A stretch of 64,000 bases of DNA from Lachnospira pectinoschiza (lineage in GTDB: Bacteria > Bacillota > Clostridia > Lachnospirales > Lachnospiraceae), in contig NZ_JAJCRR010000006.1 of NCBI RefSeq assembly GCF_020564355.1, forward strand, positions 124,001 to 188,000. Direction: 5' to 3'. Below are positions 15,212 to 52,085 of the stretch, piece by piece (the first letter of the stretch is position 1; each line of letters opens with the position of its first letter). The position numbers and the translations under genes were made by a program. The notes under the pieces were generated by a model. It saw only the letters and a list, made by a program, of their open reading frames with translations, was not told the DNA's origin and ran no database searches.

Positions 15212-15287
15212 GGAAGAACCATAAATATAAGAACAATAAAAGAAATTAAAATGCGAGGGCGGCGCATGCCGCAGAAATGAGGTAGAG

Positions 15288-16610
15288 ATGAGAACAATTA
15301 TCAGAGGTGGCAGGGTGTTAGACCCGGCAAGCAGCACAGACGGCATCAGGGATATTCTTGTGGAAGACGGTATTATTAAAGAGGTTGCAGAACATATCAG
15401 TAACGATGCGGAAAATGTAATTGAGGCAGAAGGTCTTTATGTCATGCCGGGACTGATTGACCTGCATGTACATTTCCGGGAGCCGGGATTTGAACATAAG
15501 GAAACAATCCGTACCGGAGCCAGAGCAGCGGCAAGAGGCGGATTTACAACCGTTTGTGTCATGCCGAATACCAAGCCGGTTGTAGACAGCGTGGAAATGG
15601 TGAAGTATGTGATTGACAAGGCAAAGGAAGTAACAGATATCCATGTTCTTCCGATTGCAGCAATTACGGCGGGACAGGACGGAGAATTTATCACAGATTT
15701 TGAAAATCTGTACAAAAACGGTGCGGTTGCGGTCAGCGAAGACGGCAAGTCTGTTATGAATGCGAGAGTGGCAAGACAGGCAATGCGTCTGGCTGCGGAA
15801 GTCGGAATCCCTGTATTTGCACACTGCGAAGATAAAAATTTAGTTGCAAGAGGTGTGATGAATGCCGGCAACAGAGCCAAAGAACTCGGACTTTACGGCA
15901 TTATGAATGCGGTGGAAGACGTCATTGTGGCAAGAGATATCCTGCTTGCAAAAAACACAGGCGCAAGACTGCATCTGTGCCACTGCTCAACCGTGGACAG
16001 TGTGAAGATGACAAAGCTTGCAAAGGAAGAAGGAATAGATGTAACAGCAGAGGTTACGCCACACCATTTTACACTGACGGAAGATGATATCACAGGTGAT
16101 GATGCAAACTACAAAATGAATCCGCCACTGCGTGCTAAGGCAGACCGCGAAGCGTTAAAGGAAGGCTTAAAGGAAGGGGTTATGGATGTGATTTCAACAG
16201 ACCATGCACCGCACCACAGAACAGAAAAAGAGCGTCCGTTTGCTGAAGCACCATTTGGCATTACGGGACTTGAAACTTCTGTGAGCCTGACGATTACGGA
16301 GCTGGTGGACAAGGGTGTTTTAACACCGCTTCAGATGGCAGAACGCATGAGCTATAAGCCTGCGCAGATTATCAACAGCGACAAAGGAACACTGCTTCCG
16401 GGACGTGCGGCAGATATTACGATTATCGACCCAAATGAAGAATATGTGATTGACAGCACCCTGTTTGCATCCATGGGAAAAAATACACCGTTTAACGGAA
16501 AGACAGTTAAGGGCAGAGTCAGATATACAATGTCAGACGGCAAGGTTGTATATTCATACAGGCCGGGCTGTGAAATTATAGTAGACAAAGACGTTCCAAA
16601 ACTCATATAA
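15288..16610 (+). CDS. pyrC: Dihydroorotase
   Basis: A 440-residue zinc amidohydrolase that interconverts carbamoyl aspartate and dihydroorotate in UMP synthesis. It shows LIDLHVHFREPG for the first metal pair, PNTKPVVDS, FAHCEDKNL and LHLCHCSTVDSV for further histidines, and DVISTDHAPH with the catalytic aspartate. Length and the N-terminal IIRGGRVLDP fit the class I Gram-positive enzyme. It is first in pyrC-pyrF-pyrK-pyrD. Its leader carries a GCGGC-GCAT-GCCGC hairpin at 15259-15272 running straight into AGAAATGAGG; the ATG in that SD reads M-R-stop. No PyrR-type attenuator was recognised. Confidence 0.96.
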   Translation: MRTIIRGGRVLDPASSTDGIRDILVEDGIIKEVAEHISNDAENVIEAEGLYVMPGLIDLHVHFREPGFEHKETIRTGARAAARGGFTTVCVMPNTKPVVDSVEMVKYVIDKAKEVTDIHVLPIAAITAGQDGEFITDFENLYKNGAVAVSEDGKSVMNARVARQAMRLAAEVGIPVFAHCEDKNLVARGVMNAGNRAKELGLYGIMNAVEDVIVARDILLAKNTGARLHLCHCSTVDSVKMTKLAKEEGIDVTAEVTPHHFTLTEDDITGDDANYKMNPPLRAKADREALKEGLKEGVMDVISTDHAPHHRTEKERPFAEAPFGITGLETSVSLTITELVDKGVLTPLQMAERMSYKPAQIINSDKGTLLPGRAADITIIDPNEEYVIDSTLFASMGKNTPFNGKTVKGRVRYTMSDGKVVYSYRPGCEIIVDKDVPKLI

Positions 16611-17571: not shown

Positions 17572-17590
17572 GCGGAAATGAGGAGCAGAA

Positions 17591-18358
17591 ATGGCATATA
17601 GAGAAAAAGTAACGATTGTACGTGCAGATGAAATCGCAACGGACATTTATGAAATGTGTTTTTCAACAAAAAATATTGCAAAGGAAGCAAAGCCGGGACA
17701 GTTCGTGTCCGTCTATTCTAACGACGGTTCGCGGCTTCTTCCGCGCCCAATCAGTATCTGCGGCATTGAGGGTGATACCCTGCGCATTGTATACCGGGCA
17801 ATCGGAAAAGGCACACAGGAATTTGCAACAATGCACGCAGGACAGACCCTTGAAGTACAGGGACCGCTTGGCAACGGCTATGACATTTCAAAGGTATCAA
17901 AGGAACGCAAAGCGATCTTGTTTGGCGGCGGTATCGGGATTCCGCCGATGTTGGAGCTGGCAAAGCAGTTAGATTGTGAAAAGAGCATTGTATTGGGTTA
18001 CCGTGATGAATTGTTTTTAAATGATGAATTTGAAGCATACGGTAAAGTGTATCTGGCAACAGAAGACGGCAGTGCCGGAACAAAGGGCAATGTATTGGAT
18101 GCCGTAAAGGCATGCGGCATTGAAGGTGACATTTTATTTGCATGCGGTCCGACACCGATGCTTCGTGCTATTAAGCAGTATGCAAAAGAAAACGGACTGG
18201 AATGTTACCTGTCCTTAGAAGAAAAAATGGCATGCGGAATCGGTGCGTGCCTTGCCTGTGTATGCAAGTCCACACAGGTAGACGACCATTCGAAGGTACA
18301 TAACAAAAGAGTCTGCAAAGAAGGACCGGTATTTAACGCAGAGGAGGTAGAACTGTAA
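17591..18358 (+). CDS. pyrK: Dihydroorotate dehydrogenase electron-transfer subunit
   Basis: A 255-residue FAD and [2Fe-2S] protein that passes electrons from PyrD to NAD. The FAD-binding motif is LLPRPISIC at about 49-57, and the NAD domain shows ILFGGGIGIPPMLELAK. The C-terminal cluster ligands are in MACGIGACLACVC with a further downstream Cys (VCKEG). Its presence identifies the type 1B NAD-linked enzyme. The stop codon and the pyrD start overlap by one base (TAATG), which implies translational coupling of the two subunits. Confidence 0.96.
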   Translation: MAYREKVTIVRADEIATDIYEMCFSTKNIAKEAKPGQFVSVYSNDGSRLLPRPISICGIEGDTLRIVYRAIGKGTQEFATMHAGQTLEVQGPLGNGYDISKVSKERKAILFGGGIGIPPMLELAKQLDCEKSIVLGYRDELFLNDEFEAYGKVYLATEDGSAGTKGNVLDAVKACGIEGDILFACGPTPMLRAIKQYAKENGLECYLSLEEKMACGIGACLACVCKSTQVDDHSKVHNKRVCKEGPVFNAEEVEL

Positions 18359-32029: not shown

Positions 32030-32710
32030 ATGGAACAGTACAAACAGGAATTTATAGAATTTATGGTAGACTGCAATGTGTTGCGGTTTGGTGAATTTAC
32101 TTTAAAGAGCGGCAGAAAGTCCCCGTTTTTTATGAATGCAGGACTTTATGTAACGGGTGCACAGCTTGAAAAGCTGGGTGAGTATTACGCGAAGGCAATT
32201 CACGATAACTACGGTGATGATTTTGATGTGCTGTTCGGACCGGCTTACAAGGGTATTCCGTTAAGCGTGGCAACAACCATGGCATATCACAGACTTTACG
32301 GTAAAGAAATCCGTTACTGCTCTAACAGAAAAGAAGCAAAAGACCACGGCGATGCAGGTATCTTACTGGGCAGCCCGATTAAAGACGGAGATAAAGTAGT
32401 TATTATTGAAGACGTAACAACTTCCGGTAAATCCATCGAAGAAACATTTCCGATTATTCAGGCACAGGGCGATGTGACAATCAAAGGCTTAATGGTGTCT
32501 TTAAACAGAATGGAACGTGGCAAAGGCGAAAAGAGTGCCCTTGTTGAAATTCAGGAAAAGTACGGTTTTCCGGCAAATGCAATTGTCAGCATGTCAGACG
32601 TTGTAGAACATTTATACAACAAGCCTTGCAACGGCAAGGTGGTTATTGATGATGAAATTAAGGCTGCCATTGACAAGTATTACGAAGAATACGGTGCGAA
32701 GGAAGCATAA
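32030..32710 (+). CDS. pyrE: Orotate phosphoribosyltransferase
   Basis: A 226-residue enzyme joining orotate and PRPP to give OMP. The PRPP-binding motif VVIIEDVTTSGKSIEET at about 123-139 is intact, and GPAYKGIPLSVATTMA and YCSNRKEAKDHGD form the flexible loop and substrate site. FTLKSGRKSPFFMNAG at the N-terminus is typical. It is separated from pyrCFKD by 13 kb and has its own promoter and structured leader, so it is probably regulated on its own. An AGGAGG site is 11 bases before ATG 32030. Intergenic repeat copy 1 begins 12 bases after the stop. Confidence 0.96.
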   Translation: MEQYKQEFIEFMVDCNVLRFGEFTLKSGRKSPFFMNAGLYVTGAQLEKLGEYYAKAIHDNYGDDFDVLFGPAYKGIPLSVATTMAYHRLYGKEIRYCSNRKEAKDHGDAGILLGSPIKDGDKVVIIEDVTTSGKSIEETFPIIQAQGDVTIKGLMVSLNRMERGKGEKSALVEIQEKYGFPANAIVSMSDVVEHLYNKPCNGKVVIDDEIKAAIDKYYEEYGAKEA

Positions 32711-32721
32711 GGAAGTAAATG

Positions 32722-32886
32722 TTTGCGAAATGAGGATAGTGTGAAAAATAACGCTGATGCGCTTATTTTTCACACGGAGATTTGTTTCTGAGCGAAAACA
32801 AATCTCCATGATTGCAGATGAGAAATCGCCTGCGCGAATTTCTCATCGCAGCTTCGCGATAAAGTCGCTCAGAAATGAGGAGTAGT
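32722..32886 (+). repeat. Intergenic hairpin repeat, copy 1
   Basis: Order of parts: SD-like GAAATGAGG (32727-32735); hairpin 1, GTGTGAAAAATA 32739-32750 with TATTTTTCACAC 32764-32775; hairpin 2, GGAGATTTGTTT 32776-32787 with AAACAAATCTCC 32796-32807; hairpin 3, GATGAGAAAT 32817-32826 with ATTTCTCATC 32838-32847; then CTCA-GAAA-TGAGG at 32869-32881, a tetraloop hairpin holding the SD of the next gene. A 16-codon frame from GTG 32741 (MKNNADALIFHTEICF) starts after the first SD. A second frame, ATG 32757 to 32885, holds SERKQISMIADEKSP. Confidence 0.85.
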
Positions 32887-33039
32887 ATGGACGAAAAGTT
32901 ATATAAAAAAATCAAGTCAATTGGCGCCGGGAATATTGTTTTTGGCATTATTTCAGTCGTATGTGGTGTTACAACAGGAGTTTTGCTGATTGTAAATGGT
33001 GCAAGACTTCTGGCACATAAATCCGACACATTATTTTAA
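32887..33039 (+). CDS. Small single-span membrane protein, 50 residues
   Basis: ATG 32887 follows the SD of repeat copy 1 (ATGAGG, seven bases upstream). The product, MDEKLYKKIKSIGAGN then IVFGIISVVCGVTTGVLLIVNGARLL, has a lysine-rich N-terminus and one hydrophobic helix of about 24 residues, and ends KSDTLF. It resembles no family I recognise. It sits between pyrE and the VanZ-like gene with 26 bases to the latter, so it probably belongs to a small membrane-protein operon with the two genes downstream. Coding status rests on SD, hydrophobic pattern and fit between neighbours. Confidence 0.6.
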   Translation: MDEKLYKKIKSIGAGNIVFGIISVVCGVTTGVLLIVNGARLLAHKSDTLF

Positions 33040-33065
33040 GCGTATCAGGAAGGTATGGGCATTGT

Positions 33066-33533
33066 GTGAAAAATAGAAAAATGAAAAAGACATTGAAATG
33101 GCTGATTTTTATTGCGTATATTGCTGCACTGGTATATTTTATGTTCTTTGCGGAAATTCTCGGAAGGACGGATGTATCACGCACGTACCGGTATAATCTT
33201 GTACCATTTAAAGAAATCAAGCGGTTTGTTAATCACTTCTGGCAGCTTGGTCTGACGGCGGTGCTTGCCAATATTGCGGGAAATGTGGTAGCATTTATGC
33301 CATTCGGGTTCTGCCTGCCGCTGATTGCAGACCATCGGATTAAGTTTTTTGGGTGTATGCTGTATACATTCGGGTTAAGTCTTGCAATCGAACTGATTCA
33401 GCTTGTATCTAAAGTGGGAAGTTTTGATGTAGATGATTTAATGCTCAATACACTCGGTGGTGTATTGGGCTATCTCACGTTTTTGTGTTACAAAAAAATG
33501 TGTCAGTTTCATAGGAAAAGGAAAAAATCATGA
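33066..33533 (+). CDS. VanZ-like membrane protein
   Basis: A 155-residue protein with four membrane helices and the VanZ-family pattern. It has YRYNLVPFKEI after helix 1, NIAGNVVAFMPFGFCLPL, and SLAIELIQLVSKVGSFDVDDLMLNTLGGVLGYL, where the Glu-Leu-Ile-Q and FDxDDLxLNTxGxxxG motifs are diagnostic. Function is unknown for most members; VanZ itself gives teicoplanin resistance. I use GTG 33066, with AGGAAGG about 11 bases upstream; ATG 33081 is the alternative. The start overlaps a GTGTGAAAAATA 12-mer identical to the 5' arm of the flanking hairpin repeats. It overlaps the next gene by four bases (ATGA). Confidence 0.85.
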   Translation: MKNRKMKKTLKWLIFIAYIAALVYFMFFAEILGRTDVSRTYRYNLVPFKEIKRFVNHFWQLGLTAVLANIAGNVVAFMPFGFCLPLIADHRIKFFGCMLYTFGLSLAIELIQLVSKVGSFDVDDLMLNTLGGVLGYLTFLCYKKMCQFHRKRKKS

Positions 33534-33847
33534 AACTTTTTAATAAATATAAATTTTCGGATAAAAGCCAGACCTTGGGGGGCATGATATCAACAGTCAT
33601 GGGATTGGCGGCACTGGTGTCGTTTGGCTATGGCATTTATATTGCATTCCAGGCAAAAGGAAACGCAGGACTCGAGGTAGGAAGCCTTGGACTGCTCAGT
33701 TTCATGCTTTCTGTTATTGGGTTGGTTATCGGACTGTTAAGCTTTAAAGAAGAAGATAAGTTTTATACATTTTCAAGAGCAGGTTCCCTGATGTGTGGTA
33801 TTTTTGCAATATTTATGGTAGCAGTGCTGATGATGGGCATAGTGTGA
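33530..33847 (+). CDS. Small membrane protein of unknown function (possibly DUF6142)
   Basis: A 105-residue protein with three membrane helices: TVMGLAALVSFGYGIYIAFQA, LGLLSFMLSVIGLVIGLLSF and SLMCGIFAIFMVAVLMMGIV. A short polar start (KLFNKYKFSDKSQTLGGM) precedes them. The pattern resembles small Lachnospiraceae families such as DUF6142, not confirmed. Translation is coupled to the VanZ-like gene through a four-base overlap. Its last codons GTG-TGA are the first bases of hairpin repeat copy 2, so the repeat begins exactly at the gene end. Confidence 0.7.
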   Translation: MKLFNKYKFSDKSQTLGGMISTVMGLAALVSFGYGIYIAFQAKGNAGLEVGSLGLLSFMLSVIGLVIGLLSFKEEDKFYTFSRAGSLMCGIFAIFMVAVLMMGIV

Positions 33848-33994
33848 AAAATATGCTTGATAGCATATTTTTCACACGGCTATTTGTTTCTGAGCGAAAA
33901 CAAATAGCCATGATTGCAGATGAGAAATCGCCTACGCGAATTTCTCATCGCATCTTTGCGACCAGTCGTTCAGAAATGAGGTATAGTGTGAATA
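33842..33994 (+). repeat. Intergenic hairpin repeat, copy 2
   Basis: Hairpin 1 is a perfect 15-base stem, 33842-33856 with 33863-33877. Hairpin 2 is GGCTATTTGTTT with AAACAAATAGCC around TCTGAGCGA. Hairpin 3 is GATGAGAAAT with ATTTCTCATC, and the end is TTCA-GAAA-TGAGG at 33970-33982. Compared with copy 1, hairpin 2 has two compensatory pair changes and the apex of hairpin 1 differs on both arms while staying paired. A frame from 33844 to 34008 stays open (54 codons, with SERKQIAMIADEKSP) and a six-codon frame GTG 33988 to TAA 34008 abuts the next ATG. Confidence 0.85.
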
Positions 33995-34008
33995 GTGAGG
34001 ATTTGTAA

Positions 34009-36069
34009 ATGTTTGAAGATAATCTGAAGGAACGATACGGTCTGGCAATTGATCGTATTGCGGAAATTAAAGAAAATTCAGAGATAGAAGATGCCGGACT
34101 GGCAGCATATTTTACGTACACGGCAGAATTTCTTTTACTTGTGGATAAATGGAATGAGAAAAGAAAAGCCGGTGGATATGATAAACTGCCATTGGAAGAA
34201 TTGCAGCACTGGAATACGGTTTTGTATGAAGACATTATCGGGAAACAATATGATAACAGCTTTGCCAATCCGTCTTATGCCTGTGCACGGCTTGGAGAAG
34301 ACATAGGCAGGATTTTATCGTTTTTGTATACAGAACTGCGCGGGTGTATCGTGTTTGCAGCAGAACAGCGTAAAGCTGATTTTACGGTATTGTTAGAACT
34401 TTTTGTTGAATGTTACTGCATTTGCAAGGACGGTGAAAATATTGCGGCACAGTTAAAGGATTCCATTTACTGGTATATGAGTGATTACAGCGATGATTTT
34501 ATCGAGTACAGGGTGCGGGAGCAGTTAGACCCGTCGCTGGATTTTGCGGTGCGCATTATTATGGACAGCGATTTGACGGATTTGAGATATTTATACCGGT
34601 ATGGTGAGTATATTACGGAAAATGAACTTCGTACCGCAGCATTTTTAAATACGCTTTCCCAGACAGAGATTGAACAAATGGCATCGACCTTTACGGAAGG
34701 ATACCGCATCGGATTTGAACTGGGCAATAAAGATATCAGCAAAAAGAAACTGGTTAATATCCGTTACTGCATCGGATTTGAACGGCTGGTAAGAGAGGAA
34801 ATCCGTCAGTTTGAACAGATGGGCTTAAAGACGACGATATATCGTGCGGCACAGCATTCTATCAATAAGCGCATGCACCACAAAATCGGTTATTACGCAA
34901 CCAGCCCGAACAAGCAGATGGACTACGACCATCGTTTTGACAATGCGTTGTATTTAGATGCGCAGTTTGTTGAAAGGAAGCTTGGGGCACTTCGCTTTGC
35001 ATATGAACAGCATAAGGAAGCAGCGGCAGTTTTTGGCGGTCCTGCGGTCATGGAAGTGTTCGGCGAAAATCCGTTTGAGCCGGAAGATAAAAAAGAAGCC
35101 CTGCATTTAGATGAAAAACAGCAGAAGCTTTCTGTAAAATATGACAGCGAGTCTTCGGCAGTTGTCAATAAATATATTAAAGGCGAGGAAAGAAGCTTTA
35201 CGATTATTGCATACCCGCTGCCGGAAATCAGTGAAAATGCGGACGAATATGAAAAAATCTTTCATGAAATCGTGCGGATTAATACCCTCGACTACAATCA
35301 GTATAAGGAAATCCAGCAGACGATTATTGATACCTTGGACGGCGCGGAATACGTGCATGTCAAAGGATGTGGTAATAATCAGACGGATATGCGTGTGTCT
35401 CTGCAGAAAATCACCAATCCGCAGAAGGAAACGGTTTTTGAAAACTGTCTTGCCGATGTCAACATTCCGTTGGGAGAAGTCTTTACCTCTCCCGTTTTAA
35501 AAGGAACAGAAGGCATTTTAAATGTCAGCAGTGTTTATCTGAATGATTTGAAATTTATTAATTTAAAGGTGTCTTTTAAAGATGGTATGGTCACGGATTA
35601 TTCCTGTGATAATTTTGAAGATGCGAAAAAAGGCAGACAGTATTTTAAAGAAAATGTGTTATTGAACCATGACACCCTGCCAATCGGTGAATTTGCAATC
35701 GGAACGAATACAACAGCGTATGTGATGGCAAATCAATACGACATTGTATACAAGCTGCCGATTCTTATTGTGGAAAAAATGGGACCGCATTTTGCAATCG
35801 GTGATACATGTTATTCCAGAGCGGAGGACAATATTGTATACAATCCGAACGGTAAGGAAATTATTTCACGGGATAATGAAATTTCCATACTGCGAAAGAC
35901 CGAGCCGGAAAAAGCATATTTTAACTGCCATACGGACATTACGATTCCGTATGATGAAATCGGCAGTATTTCGGCAGTATCGGAAGATGGCAGCGAAACC
36001 GTCATTATTGAAAACGGCAGATTTGTACTTGCAGGCTGTGAAGAATTAAACAAACCGTTTTTAAAATAA
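34009..36069 (+). CDS. M29-family aminopeptidase-like protein with long N-terminal extension
   Basis: A 686-residue protein. The C-terminal 310 residues fit the M29 metallo-aminopeptidase (AmpS/PepS) fold: VKGCGNNQTDMRVSLQ, then NIPLGEVFTSPVLKGTEG with E490, LPIGEFAIGTNT with E561, and GPHFAIGDTCYS with H594 and D599 as expected metal ligands. M29 enzymes are usually about 400 residues. Here about 300 extra N-terminal residues, helical and charged, precede the domain and have no family I recognise. It is cytosolic, likely trimming peptides. Start ATG 34009 follows directly on the stop of a six-codon frame, with GTGAGG as SD, so coupling is likely. Confidence 0.75.
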   Translation: MFEDNLKERYGLAIDRIAEIKENSEIEDAGLAAYFTYTAEFLLLVDKWNEKRKAGGYDKLPLEELQHWNTVLYEDIIGKQYDNSFANPSYACARLGEDIGRILSFLYTELRGCIVFAAEQRKADFTVLLELFVECYCICKDGENIAAQLKDSIYWYMSDYSDDFIEYRVREQLDPSLDFAVRIIMDSDLTDLRYLYRYGEYITENELRTAAFLNTLSQTEIEQMASTFTEGYRIGFELGNKDISKKKLVNIRYCIGFERLVREEIRQFEQMGLKTTIYRAAQHSINKRMHHKIGYYATSPNKQMDYDHRFDNALYLDAQFVERKLGALRFAYEQHKEAAAVFGGPAVMEVFGENPFEPEDKKEALHLDEKQQKLSVKYDSESSAVVNKYIKGEERSFTIIAYPLPEISENADEYEKIFHEIVRINTLDYNQYKEIQQTIIDTLDGAEYVHVKGCGNNQTDMRVSLQKITNPQKETVFENCLADVNIPLGEVFTSPVLKGTEGILNVSSVYLNDLKFINLKVSFKDGMVTDYSCDNFEDAKKGRQYFKENVLLNHDTLPIGEFAIGTNTTAYVMANQYDIVYKLPILIVEKMGPHFAIGDTCYSRAEDNIVYNPNGKEIISRDNEISILRKTEPEKAYFNCHTDITIPYDEIGSISAVSEDGSETVIIENGRFVLAGCEELNKPFLK

Positions 36070-39654: not shown

Positions 39655-39775
39655 CTAAGGGCAGATGAGAAATCGTTTTGCGGCAAAGCTGTTCAGAAAT
39701 GAGGCTTATATGAAAAATAAATTTGCATGGGGTGAAAATGCCTTGTGCAAATTTATTTGATTTTTACATACAAAT
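39655..39775 (+). repeat. Intergenic hairpin repeat, diverged copy 3
   Basis: GCCC-TAA-GGGC (39652-39662), then GATGAGAAATCG as in hairpin 3 of the other copies but with its partner arm replaced by a TTTG/CAAA stem. Then TTCA-GAAA-TGAGG at 39693-39705 and CTTATATGAAAAATA. An AAATAAATTTGCA stem pairs TGCAAATTTATTT at 39746-39758. As in copy 1, the SD is followed by a 16-codon frame, ATG 39710 to TGA 39760 (MKNKFAWGENALCKFI), whose first codons form the hairpin arm. Confidence 0.7.
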
Positions 39776-49995: not shown

Positions 49996-52038
49996 ATGAA
50001 GTTGAAAAAATTTGCAACAGGCGTATTTGCCATGGCAGCGGTGGCAGCTGCACTCATTTTTACAGGCGGTACATCCGTTACGGCAAAGGCTGCGGTGAAC
50101 ACAAAATCAGATATTGAGATAGCAACACGTTTGCATAATTATTCCAGAAGTGCAAGTCCGATTGGTTCTTATCTTGTAGATATCGGAAATGGGAATATGA
50201 TGCGTGTCCAGTTTGATTATGATTCAAGCAATATATATGTTGAATATTACGATTCACAGTATAACGTTACAGGTGTCAGACAGCTTGCCCCGGAACTTCC
50301 TATATATGGCGGTTTCTACAGCGGCAGTGATGCTTACTATATTGTAACAGGACAGAAAAATGAGGAAGAATCAGATACGGTGGAATGTTACAGAATTACA
50401 AAGTATGACAAGAACTGGAACAGAATCGGTTCAGCCGGATTGTATGATTGTAACACATTTCTTCCGTTTCGTGCAGGATGTGTAAGGATGACAGAAGCGG
50501 ACGGCTATCTTTTTGTAAGAACCAGTCATCAGATGTATTTGTCGTCAGACGGACTTCGTCATCAGGCCAATGTAACCATTCAGTTTGATGAAAACAAGCT
50601 GGTGATTACAGATTCTTATACGGATGTTATGAATTCGAAATACGGGTATGTGAGCCACTCATTTAACCAGTTTATTAAAACGGAAGGAAACCATCTTGTT
50701 GCAGTGGATCATGGAGATGCCTATCCGAGAAGCATTGTACTGACAGAATACCAGACAGATTTTACAAATGGTCAGTTTATTTCCAATATGAATTATTGGA
50801 AAAATCCTTGTAAATCGACAGACCTTTTTGAATTTACGGGAGAAATCGGAGATAATGCTACAGGTGCATCCGTAGGTGGATTTGAGGTCACAGACAGTGC
50901 ATATCTTGTTGCAGCCAATTCCATTAATCAGGAAGATACAAGTGATGACCGCAGCAGGCATGATTATCGTAACGTATGCATTGTCGGAAAGTCAAAAAGA
51001 GACGGACATACATTTGTGAATTGGCTGACGAATCTGGAAGGTGATTTATCAGCAACAACTCCGTATTTGGTAAAGATAAATGATAATAAATATCTTGTGA
51101 TGTGGTCCTATCAAAAACGGTCAGTCGGAGCAATAGATTATACATATATTGATGCGGACGGCAGTCAGATCAGCCCGGTATATACCATGAATGGAATGCT
51201 TTCAGATTGTGAACCGGTATATATCAATGATACCGTAGTGTGGTATACATCCGATAGCGATGGAAATGTAACTTTTTACGGTGTGGATAGTAATGGAAAT
51301 GCGTTGGGAAGCCTCAATGGATTGATATATGATGGTGATAACTGGGTGTATTACCGCAATGATAATCCGGATTATGGATATACAGGACTTGCAGCCAATG
51401 AGTATGGCTGGTGGTATGTAAGTAACGGGACAATTGATTTTGATTATACGGGACTTGCAGCCAATGAGTACGGCTGGTGGTATGTAAGTAACGGGACAAT
51501 CGATTTTAGTTATACCGGAATGGCAGCTAATGACTATGGCTGGTGGTATGTAAGCAACGGAGCAATCGATTTTAATTATACGGGAATGGCGGTGAATGAT
51601 TACGGCTGGTGGTACATGACCAACGGCGCATTAGACTGGAACTATACGGGAATGGCAGCCAACGATTACGGCTGGTGGTATATGACCAACGGTGCATTAG
51701 ACTGGAACTATACGGGAATGGCGGTGAATGATTACGGCTGGTGGTATATGACCAACGGTGCATTAGACTGGAATTATACGGGAATGGCAGTGAATGACTA
51801 CGGCTGGTGGTACATGACCAACGGTGCATTAGACTGGAACTATACGGGAATGGCGGTGAATGATTACGGCTGGTGGTATATGACCAATGGCGCGTTAGAC
51901 AGGAATTACACCGGACTTGCAGTGAATGAGTATGGCTGGTGGTATATGACCAATGGCGCACTGGATTTAACGTATAACGGAACAGCAGATAATGAATATG
52001 GAACATGGAATGTTGTAAACGGACATGTAGAGGTCTAG
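49996..52038 (+). CDS. Secreted protein with ten C-terminal cell-wall-binding-like repeats
   Basis: A 680-residue exported protein. Signal peptide: MKLKKFATGVFAMAAVAAALIFTGG, cleavage likely near VTAKAA (about 32-35). Residues 40-450 are rich in short beta strands and Asp, Gly and aromatic residues, resembling a beta-propeller or lectin-like domain, with no family I can name. Residues 462-680 are ten units of 22 residues of the type YTGMAVNDYGWWYMTNGALDWN, close to the choline-binding-like repeats that attach proteins to the cell wall. The last unit is degenerate. An AAGAGGATAGTGT site precedes ATG 49996. A surface-binding or adhesion role is inferred. Confidence 0.82.
   Translation: MKLKKFATGVFAMAAVAAALIFTGGTSVTAKAAVNTKSDIEIATRLHNYSRSASPIGSYLVDIGNGNMMRVQFDYDSSNIYVEYYDSQYNVTGVRQLAPELPIYGGFYSGSDAYYIVTGQKNEEESDTVECYRITKYDKNWNRIGSAGLYDCNTFLPFRAGCVRMTEADGYLFVRTSHQMYLSSDGLRHQANVTIQFDENKLVITDSYTDVMNSKYGYVSHSFNQFIKTEGNHLVAVDHGDAYPRSIVLTEYQTDFTNGQFISNMNYWKNPCKSTDLFEFTGEIGDNATGASVGGFEVTDSAYLVAANSINQEDTSDDRSRHDYRNVCIVGKSKRDGHTFVNWLTNLEGDLSATTPYLVKINDNKYLVMWSYQKRSVGAIDYTYIDADGSQISPVYTMNGMLSDCEPVYINDTVVWYTSDSDGNVTFYGVDSNGNALGSLNGLIYDGDNWVYYRNDNPDYGYTGLAANEYGWWYVSNGTIDFDYTGLAANEYGWWYVSNGTIDFSYTGMAANDYGWWYVSNGAIDFNYTGMAVNDYGWWYMTNGALDWNYTGMAANDYGWWYMTNGALDWNYTGMAVNDYGWWYMTNGALDWNYTGMAVNDYGWWYMTNGALDWNYTGMAVNDYGWWYMTNGALDRNYTGLAVNEYGWWYMTNGALDLTYNGTADNEYGTWNVVNGHVEV
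51379..52035 (+). repeat. Tandem 66-base repeat array within the secreted protein gene
   Basis: Ten in-frame units of 66 bases start at 51379, 51445, 51511, 51577, 51643, 51709, 51775, 51841, 51907 and 51973 (last one 63 bases). Units four to eight are nearly identical at DNA level, differing mainly at synonymous sites and A/V, so this part was probably expanded or homogenised recently. Confidence 0.93.
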
Positions 52039-52050
52039 GGTACACACAGG

Positions 52051-52085
52051 AAAGACAGGGAGAACGAATTGCTCCCTGTCTTTTT
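52051..52085 (+). terminator. Terminator after the secreted repeat protein gene
   Basis: AAAGACAGGGAG at 52051-52062 pairs with CTCCCTGTCTTT at 52072-52083, loop of nine bases, followed by T residues. Confidence 0.93.

What the first reader, a model, noticed from the sequence alone, without database searches (positions are those of the whole stretch)
32722..34008. Intergenic hairpin repeat whose stems are kept by compensatory changes
Copies at 32722-32886 and 33842-33994 share three hairpins and a 3' SD hairpin, with a diverged copy at 39655-39775. Between copies 1 and 2, hairpin 2 changes GGAGATTTG/CAAATCTCC to GGCTATTTG/CAAATAGCC (two compensatory pairs), and the apex of hairpin 1 changes on both arms yet stays paired. 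That implies selection on folded RNA (or single-stranded DNA), not just recent copying. Each copy starts at the end of one gene and supplies the SD of the next, so it looks like a spreading translation or processing module.
Basis: seen in the sequence. Interest (0 to 1): 0.75.

Follow-up and report, generated by a model that had tools for sequence, protein, structure and literature searches.

The report
Interspersed hairpin repeat at ribosome-binding sites
Two copies of a roughly 140-base, four-hairpin repeat interrupt an operon here; the same repeat occurs up to well over a hundred times in some related gut bacteria, usually sitting between a gene's ribosome-binding site and its start codon, so it looks like an uncatalogued mobile element that swaps in its own ribosome-binding site.

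Summary
The observation mostly holds. Two copies (32739-32880, 33842-33981) fold far better than shuffles and differ by compensated changes; the third (39655-39775) is a fragment that the covariance model does not see. They belong to a large, patchy Lachnospiraceae family: 139 and 142 matches in two genomes (150 candidates scored each), matches in 21 of 150 sampled genomes of the family and in 5 of 9 of one genus. No Rfam, phage or plasmid match was found. The element has four hairpins, and the loop of hairpin 2 is complementary to the segment just before the SD. In 112 of 140 copies an SD-like motif precedes hairpin 1; in 109 of 140 a gene starts within 12 nt of the element's own SD. Of five relatives read at the window's operon, five lack copy 2 and four lack copy 1 (one has a diverged element there). 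So these are insertions, mostly between RBS and start codon. Selection on folded RNA is not supported for the stems: G-U and A-C cells are equally frequent (50 vs 56; tRNA control 8 vs 1). I read it as a non-autonomous mobile repeat that re-supplies the RBS; the enzyme is unknown, and Y1 transposases do not track it.

The parts
32727..32736 (+). left direct repeat GAAATGAGGA holding an SD (RBS1) just upstream of copy 1
   Evidence: identical 10-mer at 32872-32881
32739..32880 (+). copy 1 of the repeat, full length to the R1 model
   Evidence: 150.0 bits; fold z -6.80
32739..32775 (+). copy 1 hairpin H1 (16 bp, one bulge, UGAU tetraloop); its GTG lies where a start codon for RBS1 would be
32776..32807 (+). 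copy 1 hairpin H2; TTTCTGAGCG at 32785-32794 covers its loop
32814..32849 (+). copy 1 hairpin H3 (GATGAGAAAT..ATTTCTCATC)
32850..32875 (+). copy 1 H4 region; CGCTCAGAAA at 32866-32875 is fully complementary to 32785-32794 in H2 (possible pseudoknot)
   Evidence: sequence, motif positions; family-wide pairing
32872..32881 (+). right direct repeat GAAATGAGGA, the SD supplied by the element (RBS2)
32887..33039 (+). short ORF (50 aa) started by RBS2
   Evidence: sequence; a similar gene start follows pyrE in the five relatives printed
33839..33848 (+). left direct repeat ATAGTGTGAA at copy 2; contains the stop of the upstream DUF6142 gene and overlaps H1
   Evidence: gene end ATAGTGTAA in relative L325
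33842..33981 (+). copy 2 of the repeat, full length to the R1 model
   Evidence: 144.8 bits; fold z -7.53
33842..33877 (+). copy 2 H1
33878..33909 (+). copy 2 H2, stem changed at two pairs relative to copy 1
33916..33951 (+). copy 2 H3
33952..33981 (+). copy 2 H4 region and SD-like GAGG (33978-33981)
33983..33992 (+). right direct repeat ATAGTGTGAA at copy 2
39661..39704 (+). relic: H3 left arm plus tail and SD of the repeat, no full element
   Evidence: exact 15-mer and 11-mer; no R1 match up to E=10

Best explanation
It is a non-autonomous, interspersed mobile repeat of Lachnospiraceae, about 130-145 nt long, made of four hairpins and ending in its own Shine-Dalgarno sequence. It inserts mostly in one position: after a host gene's SD and spacer and just before the start codon. 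The old SD is left upstream, facing a start-like codon buried in hairpin 1, and the gene is handed over to the SD at the element's 3' end, so insertion in an operon is roughly neutral for the downstream gene. Shown here: the anatomy, the copy numbers, the patchy amplification, the position relative to SD and start, orthologous sites without the element, tandem and mixed arrays, and flanking direct repeats in the window and in two of six genomes tested. Inferred: movement as DNA by an unidentified enzyme acting in trans; near-neutrality; and upkeep of the stems mainly by DNA-level palindrome processes (template switching, or hairpins recognised as single-stranded DNA) rather than by selection on the sense RNA. 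The complementarity of the H2 loop to the pre-SD segment recurs across lineages and is the one feature that still points to an RNA or ssDNA tertiary role.
For: CM counts: 139, 142, 49, 65, 12 and 7 in six genomes, at most 150 candidates scored each; 21 of 150 sampled genomes of the family, stricter filters, 21 candidates scored each; 139, 22, 3, 1, 1, 0, 0, 0, 0 within one genus; ten copies with the same top score in one genome, three of them in tandem. Position: SD-like 4-mer within 13 nt before H1 in 112 of 140 copies vs 18 of 140 in a control window; gene start within 12 nt after the element SD in 109 of 140, mode 6 nt; another element follows in 12 more. Empty sites: murC 8 of 8 and miaA 7 of 7 other genomes of the genus (R1 finds the element there only in G001); the window's own sites: of five relatives printed, site 1 empty in 4, site 2 empty in 5. 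Direct repeats: within-locus RBS1/RBS2 match beyond permutation in G001 (0 of 10000) and G067 (p 2e-4). Stems: 93.4% of cells paired, covariation 0.363 vs at most 0.055 when slid; G-U 50 vs A-C 56. H2 loop vs tail: own score 7.48 vs 4.35 for shuffled loops.
Against: No mobilising enzyme was found: Y1 transposase (PF01797) occurs in 7 of 21 element-positive and 78 of 129 element-negative genomes, and in none of G001, G004, G018, G048. No terminal inverted repeat (own score 3.89 vs 4.01 shuffled, 139 copies). RBS1/RBS2 similarity is not significant in G002, G003, G004 and G018, so a target-site duplication is not general. Empty sites come from other species, so the exact pre-insertion sequence is not seen. 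Copy 2 in the window is not exactly between SD and start, and 19 of 140 copies are followed by neither a gene start nor another element by my test. The SD of the element is not more exposed on average, so near-neutrality rests on position alone. Within genomes, H3 mismatches outnumber compensated H3 changes, so upkeep of that stem is weak. Conserved features (YGAU loop of H1, H2-loop complementarity) would not be needed by a purely passive repeat.
Confidence: 0.72

Rival explanations
1. A cis-regulatory RNA: H4 flush with the SD and a competing pseudoknot (H2 loop with the H4 3' arm) form a two-state switch that sets translation of the downstream gene, spread to many genes as a regulon.
For: H2 loop and pre-SD segment are complementary in the main lineages with different letters (CCGGAGCG/CGCTCCGG, CTGAGCG/CGCTCAG, TCAGAGC/GCTCTGA, TGCCGC/GCGGCA) and in the very diverged element L331 (TCGGAGC/GCTCCGA, read); on A1 83.2% of pseudoknot cells pair vs 25.7-41.6% when slid; within-genome permutation significant in G001, G002, G004; sense orientation and SD spacing.
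Against: No G-U excess in stems H1-H3 (50 vs 56 A-C) or H4 (12 vs 40, crude alignment); pseudoknot G-U 17 vs A-C 7 is not significant (p 0.064); on A1 the number of pseudoknot pairs changed on both sides (3) and of further pair types (12) is what shuffles give (369 and 227 of 500); permutation not significant in G003, G018, G067; the genes behind it are unrelated (by my reading of the sequences, murC, miaA, cmk, cytidine deaminase, methyltransferase, glmS, fabZ); patchy presence in one genus; no Rfam match.
Confidence: 0.13
2. A REP/REPIN- or IS200/IS605-type element moved as single-stranded DNA by a Y1 (HUH) transposase that reads the hairpins; flanks ending in TAG would be the cleavage signal.
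For: Symmetric hairpins with bulges, no terminal inverted repeats, frequent TAG at both ends in G004, no G-U/A-C asymmetry.
Against: PF01797 is absent from four element-rich genomes and less frequent in element-positive genomes (incomplete MAGs are a caveat); many copies have TAA or other triplets at the left flank.
Confidence: 0.1
3. A leader-peptide or translational-coupling module: RBS1 drives a short ORF starting in H1 (MKN...) that ends near the downstream start.
For: A start-like codon sits at SD spacing at the foot of H1 in most copies listed; the ORF is open through the whole element in some copies, and 7 database proteins match one of them.
Against: The frame is not conserved after H1 (stop positions scatter from 7 to beyond the element); the start codon is paired (mean unpaired probability 0.05; above 0.5 in none of 111 copies).
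Confidence: 0.04
4. Ordinary recent duplication of an intergenic region, the compensations being chance.
For: Only two full copies in this window.
Against: Hundreds of copies in other genomes; 47 of 49 pairs with changes on both sides, more than in any of 500 shuffles.
Confidence: 0.01

Closest known systems
Pneumococcal BOX, RUP and SPRITE repeats (PMC3049150; search listing and passages)
   Same: Short, highly base-paired, interspersed, found inserted into one another, thought to have proliferated as non-autonomous elements and now and then to create ORFs; BOX is modular and transcribed.
   Different: BOX and RUP have terminal inverted repeats and target-site duplications (passage). The present repeat has no terminal inverted repeat, lies mostly between SD and start codon, and carries an SD. 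Different bacteria and sequence.
MITEs (definition as in the passage of PMC3049150)
   Same: Structured, non-coding, many copies; flanking direct repeats at the window copies and in two genomes.
   Different: No terminal inverted repeats; no partner IS identified; duplication not general.
REP/REPIN elements with RAYT transposases (recalled; PMC6006769 seen in the listing only)
   Same: Imperfect hairpins, high copy number, intergenic.
   Different: Four-hairpin unit of about 140 nt with an SD, not a REP pair; no co-occurrence with Y1 transposases.
Translation-acting riboswitch-like leaders (general, recalled)
   Same: Hairpins and a possible pseudoknot next to the SD, sense orientation.
   Different: Up to well over a hundred copies per genome before unrelated genes, lineage-specific amplification, no Rfam family, no G-U bias.

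Membership tests
MITE | many non-coding copies per genome, present or absent at orthologous sites of relatives | tested here: met
   orthologous sites without it in other species, (no strain pairs seen)
MITE | terminal inverted repeats matching an IS | tested here: not met
   first 22 nt vs reverse complement of the last 26 nt: own 3.89, shuffled 4.01, 139 of 140 copies; no IS ends were compared
MITE | target-site duplication | tested here: inconclusive
   10-bp direct repeats at both window copies; G001 and G067 significant, four genomes not
REP/REPIN-RAYT | resident Y1 (RAYT) transposase | tested here: not met
   none found in G001, G004, G018, G048; genomes may be incomplete
BOX (S. pneumoniae) | boxA-boxB-boxC modules | not tested
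   BOX models were not run; the features were only read in passages of PMC3049150
cis-regulatory RNA (riboswitch-like) | stem variation with G-U favoured over A-C, as for selected RNA stems | tested here: not met
   G-U 50 vs A-C 56; tRNA control 8 vs 1
cis-regulatory RNA (riboswitch-like) | effect on expression of the downstream gene | not testable with these tools
   needs reporter or transcriptome data
Any Rfam family | score above the family's gathering cut-off | tested here: not met
   0 matches in the window and in 10 loci of several subtypes

The most novel reading that the evidence does not exclude
A mobile regulatory RNA: an RBS-targeted element that inserts itself between SD and start codon and places well over a hundred unrelated genes, essential ones among them, under one SD-adjacent two-state RNA switch (H4 hairpin versus H2-loop pseudoknot), thereby building a translational regulon by transposition.
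Probability: 0.12. Interest if true: 0.88.

Novelty: new variant of a known kind. Interest (0 to 1): 0.62.

Why it matters
Small interspersed repeats are known in many bacteria, but one that lands mostly between Shine-Dalgarno and start codon and carries its own Shine-Dalgarno would be a distinct strategy for living inside operons without silencing them. In the richest genomes it has well over a hundred copies, so it shapes leaders, gene-start calls and small-ORF annotation in an important group of gut bacteria. It is also a ready case for separating RNA selection from DNA palindrome processes as causes of compensated stem changes: a caution for covariation-based RNA discovery in repeats.

Tried and rejected
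Whole-genome copy count for the window's own organism: not possible (no genome is held). Rfam, including a sub-threshold search of 32700-34020: only chance-like hits. Viral contigs, phages, plasmids: nothing. Leader-peptide idea: set aside because the frame drifts after H1. Exposure of the element's SD: mean unpaired probability 0.34 vs 0.38 with a shuffled element, though 11% of copies vs 1% of shuffled ones exceed 0.7 (111 of 140 copies). Y1 transposase as mobiliser: not supported. Literature: seven searches listed nothing that describes this repeat in title or abstract start; only openly licensed papers are held and I read passages of one. Use of G003 relatives to read an exact empty site: the site in G201 is free of the element, but too diverged to show the original junction and occupied by another small repeat.

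Biases to bear in mind: the first scan fixed the H3 arms, so H3 invariance in A1 is partly imposed; the later CM-based sets relax this and show other H3 stems. Genome sets are top-scoring CM hits, which favours intact stems. A1 used the two window copies and 69 of the 81 extracted copies; I left out 12 (near repeats of copies already in, or large insertions). Alignment A2 holds 150 of 177 matches and includes some antisense matches of the palindromes. One of the 140 copies (L198) was cut at a contig end and mis-parsed but stayed in the counts. The H4 count (12 G-U, 40 A-C) comes from a crude symmetric alignment of 119 of 140 copies, and its cells are not independent. One search pairs H3 arms by fixed position and misreads variants with a shifted stem. 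In one search the 50-aa ORF query was in a wrong frame; I did not use it.

Full report
OBSERVATION. In the whole window, the family covariance model R1 (built from 71 copies, the window's two included) finds these two full matches, plus the antisense shadow of their own H3 palindromes. The 'third copy' is a relic: H3 left arm, tail and SD only. Compensated changes between copies 1 and 2 are as described.

A LARGE FAMILY. They hold 126 copies. R1 finds 177 matches (E up to 0.01, both strands, palindrome shadows included) in the window and 99 of these loci. Whole-genome counts are 139, 142, 49, 65, 12 and 7 in six carriers, with at most 150 candidates scored per genome. In the family of G004, 21 of 150 sampled genomes match (stricter filters, at most 21 candidates scored each), and in the genus of G001 the nine counts are 139, 22, 3, 1, 1, 0, 0, 0, 0. 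So amplification is lineage-specific. G004 has ten copies with exactly the same top score, three of them in tandem. Viral contigs, phages and plasmids gave nothing, and Rfam nothing above its cut-offs (sub-threshold).

ANATOMY. From 5' to 3': H1 (13-16 bp, commonly a YGAU tetraloop); H2 (stem around ATTTG/CAAAT, 7-9 nt loop); a 6-nt linker; H3 (10 + 3 bp, one bulged A in most copies); H4, which often has an outer stem, a UC/UC internal loop, an inner stem and a tetraloop; then an SD and a spacer often ending in TA(G). The H2 loop is complementary to the 3' arm of H4, which abuts the SD. This holds in the main lineages with different letters and in the strongly diverged element L331. Own loop/tail score is 7.48 against 4.35 for shuffled loops. 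Within genomes, own pairs beat permuted pairs in G001, G002 and G004, but not in G003, G018 and G067. On A1 the proposed pseudoknot pairs 83.2% of cells, against 25.7-41.6% when slid, but the number of its pairs with changes on both sides (3 of 7) and of further pair types is what shuffles give. Because H4 uses the same 3' arm, covariation there cannot be assigned to one of the two pairings alone.

COMPENSATION, AND WHAT IT MEANS. On 143 distinct rows across lineages, 93.4% of stem cells are paired, 47 of 49 pairs have changes on both sides, and the covariation score is 0.363 against 0.023-0.055 for slid controls (the alignment is fitted to the model). Even within one genome, H3 appears as GATGAG, GCTGAG, GAAGAG or AAGTCAG with matching partners, and a G004 subfamily has a wholly different H3 stem. 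A count against the genome consensus gives a mixed picture: H1 114 compensated cells against 47 mismatched, H3 8 against 52 (my sums over the genomes, fixed pairing). The sense strand shows no G-U preference: in 140 copies from six genomes, stems H1-H3 hold 5895 Watson-Crick, 50 G-U, 56 A-C and 164 other cells, while acceptor stems of 15 tRNAs from the same loci give 8 G-U to 1 A-C (Fisher p 0.032). Double changes (1073 cells) dwarf one-sided ones (94, my sum). Selection on folded mRNA is therefore not the simplest reading of the stems; template switching between palindrome arms, or use as ssDNA hairpins, would leave this mark (inference from general knowledge).

WHERE IT SITS. In a first set of 94 full copies, 88 have an SD in the tail; of 61 followed by an ORF of at least 60 aa, 54 start 5-7 nt after it. 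In 140 copies fetched from six genomes, an SD-like 4-mer (AGGA, GGAG, GAGG or GGGG) lies in the 13 nt before H1 in 112, against 18 in a control window 51-64 nt upstream; a gene starts within 12 nt of the element's SD in 109, mode 6 nt; a further element follows in 12, and 19 were neither by the test used, some of them clearly tandem or near a gene on reading. The start codon in H1 that would belong to the upstream SD is buried (mean unpaired probability 0.05), but the element's own SD is not more exposed on average (0.34, against 0.38 with a shuffled element; 111 of 140 copies). Downstream genes are unrelated: by my reading of the translated sequences they include murC, miaA, cmk, cytidine deaminase, a response regulator, glmS and fabZ (names recalled from the sequences, not searched).

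INSERTION. At murC the eight other genomes of the G001 genus, and at miaA the seven others with a hit, have no element upstream by eye, and R1 finds a full element only in the two G001 loci. For the window's own operon (pyrE - small ORF - vanZ - DUF6142 gene - M29-like peptidase; Pfam), 332 of 397 genomes of the family of G006 have a homologue of the last gene, and 30 loci were fetched. R1 finds an element in L331 just after pyrE (50.1 bits) and a marginal hit in L353 (E 0.058); nothing else. Of five relatives printed, site 1 is empty in L325, L327, L328 and L329 and occupied by a diverged element in L331; site 2 is empty in all five. In L328, 14 nt separate the pyrE stop from the next ATG, against 176 nt in the window. 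Both window copies are flanked by 10-bp direct repeats. In G001 the upstream and downstream RBS match each other within loci beyond all permutations, likewise in G067 (p 2e-4), but not in G002, G003, G004 or G018. I read this as target duplication in some lineages, not proven in general; at copy 2 the repeat overlaps the usual start of H1, so homology to the target is an alternative.

MECHANISM. Most likely a non-autonomous mobile repeat that targets, or is tolerated mostly at, the gap between SD and start codon, and survives there because it brings an SD at the right distance. The mobiliser is unknown. The Y1 transposase family is no candidate by co-occurrence: 7 of 21 carriers and 78 of 129 non-carriers have it, and none was found in G001, G004, G018 and G048. 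There is no terminal inverted repeat. A regulatory role of the SD-adjacent pairing is possible but unsupported beyond its recurrence.

LITERATURE. Seven searches listed nothing on this repeat; the nearest published kind I met is the pneumococcal BOX/RUP/SPRITE group (PMC3049150, passages read), which shares structure and spread but, for BOX and RUP, has terminal inverted repeats.

VERDICT. Real and much larger than reported; mechanism partly redirected, from an RNA-selected module to an RBS-inserting mobile repeat whose stem compensation does not by itself show RNA selection.

Noticed in passing
window 51247-52074: Nine 300-nt registers offset by 66 nt (66-nt periodic repeat, 61-86% identical to the reference copy); not examined for reading frame or function.
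   Followed up: no
window 15255-15290 and 17573-17595: RBS-like AGAAATGAGG or GGAAATGAGG tails without the rest of the element; the first directly follows a small GC hairpin (GCGGCGCATGCCGC), perhaps a relic or a minimal relative of the repeat.
   Followed up: no
L040, L094, L187, L194, L196 (upstream flanks): A small hairpin, mostly GC-rich, ends just before the SD that precedes the element (e.g. GCCCGCC..GGCGGGC then AGATGGGGGTTAG), which suggests a second family of short hairpin-plus-SD modules in the same genomes.
   Followed up: no
L307 (G201), between the pilT-like and pilC-like genes (names by my reading): A different short direct repeat (GGCAGCAAGTATCGTTTT and variants) occurs three times before the RBS at the site that holds the hairpin repeat in G003.
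   Followed up: no
L051:856-999: The element can be read through as a 48-aa ORF; seven database proteins match it (E 5e-20 to 4e-11), so gene callers turn the repeat into predicted proteins.
   Followed up: partly
L078, L015, L081, L091: Copies lacking H1 and part or all of H2 but with H3 and the tail intact, some lying just downstream of promoter-like sequences; 5' loss with the SD end kept.
   Followed up: no
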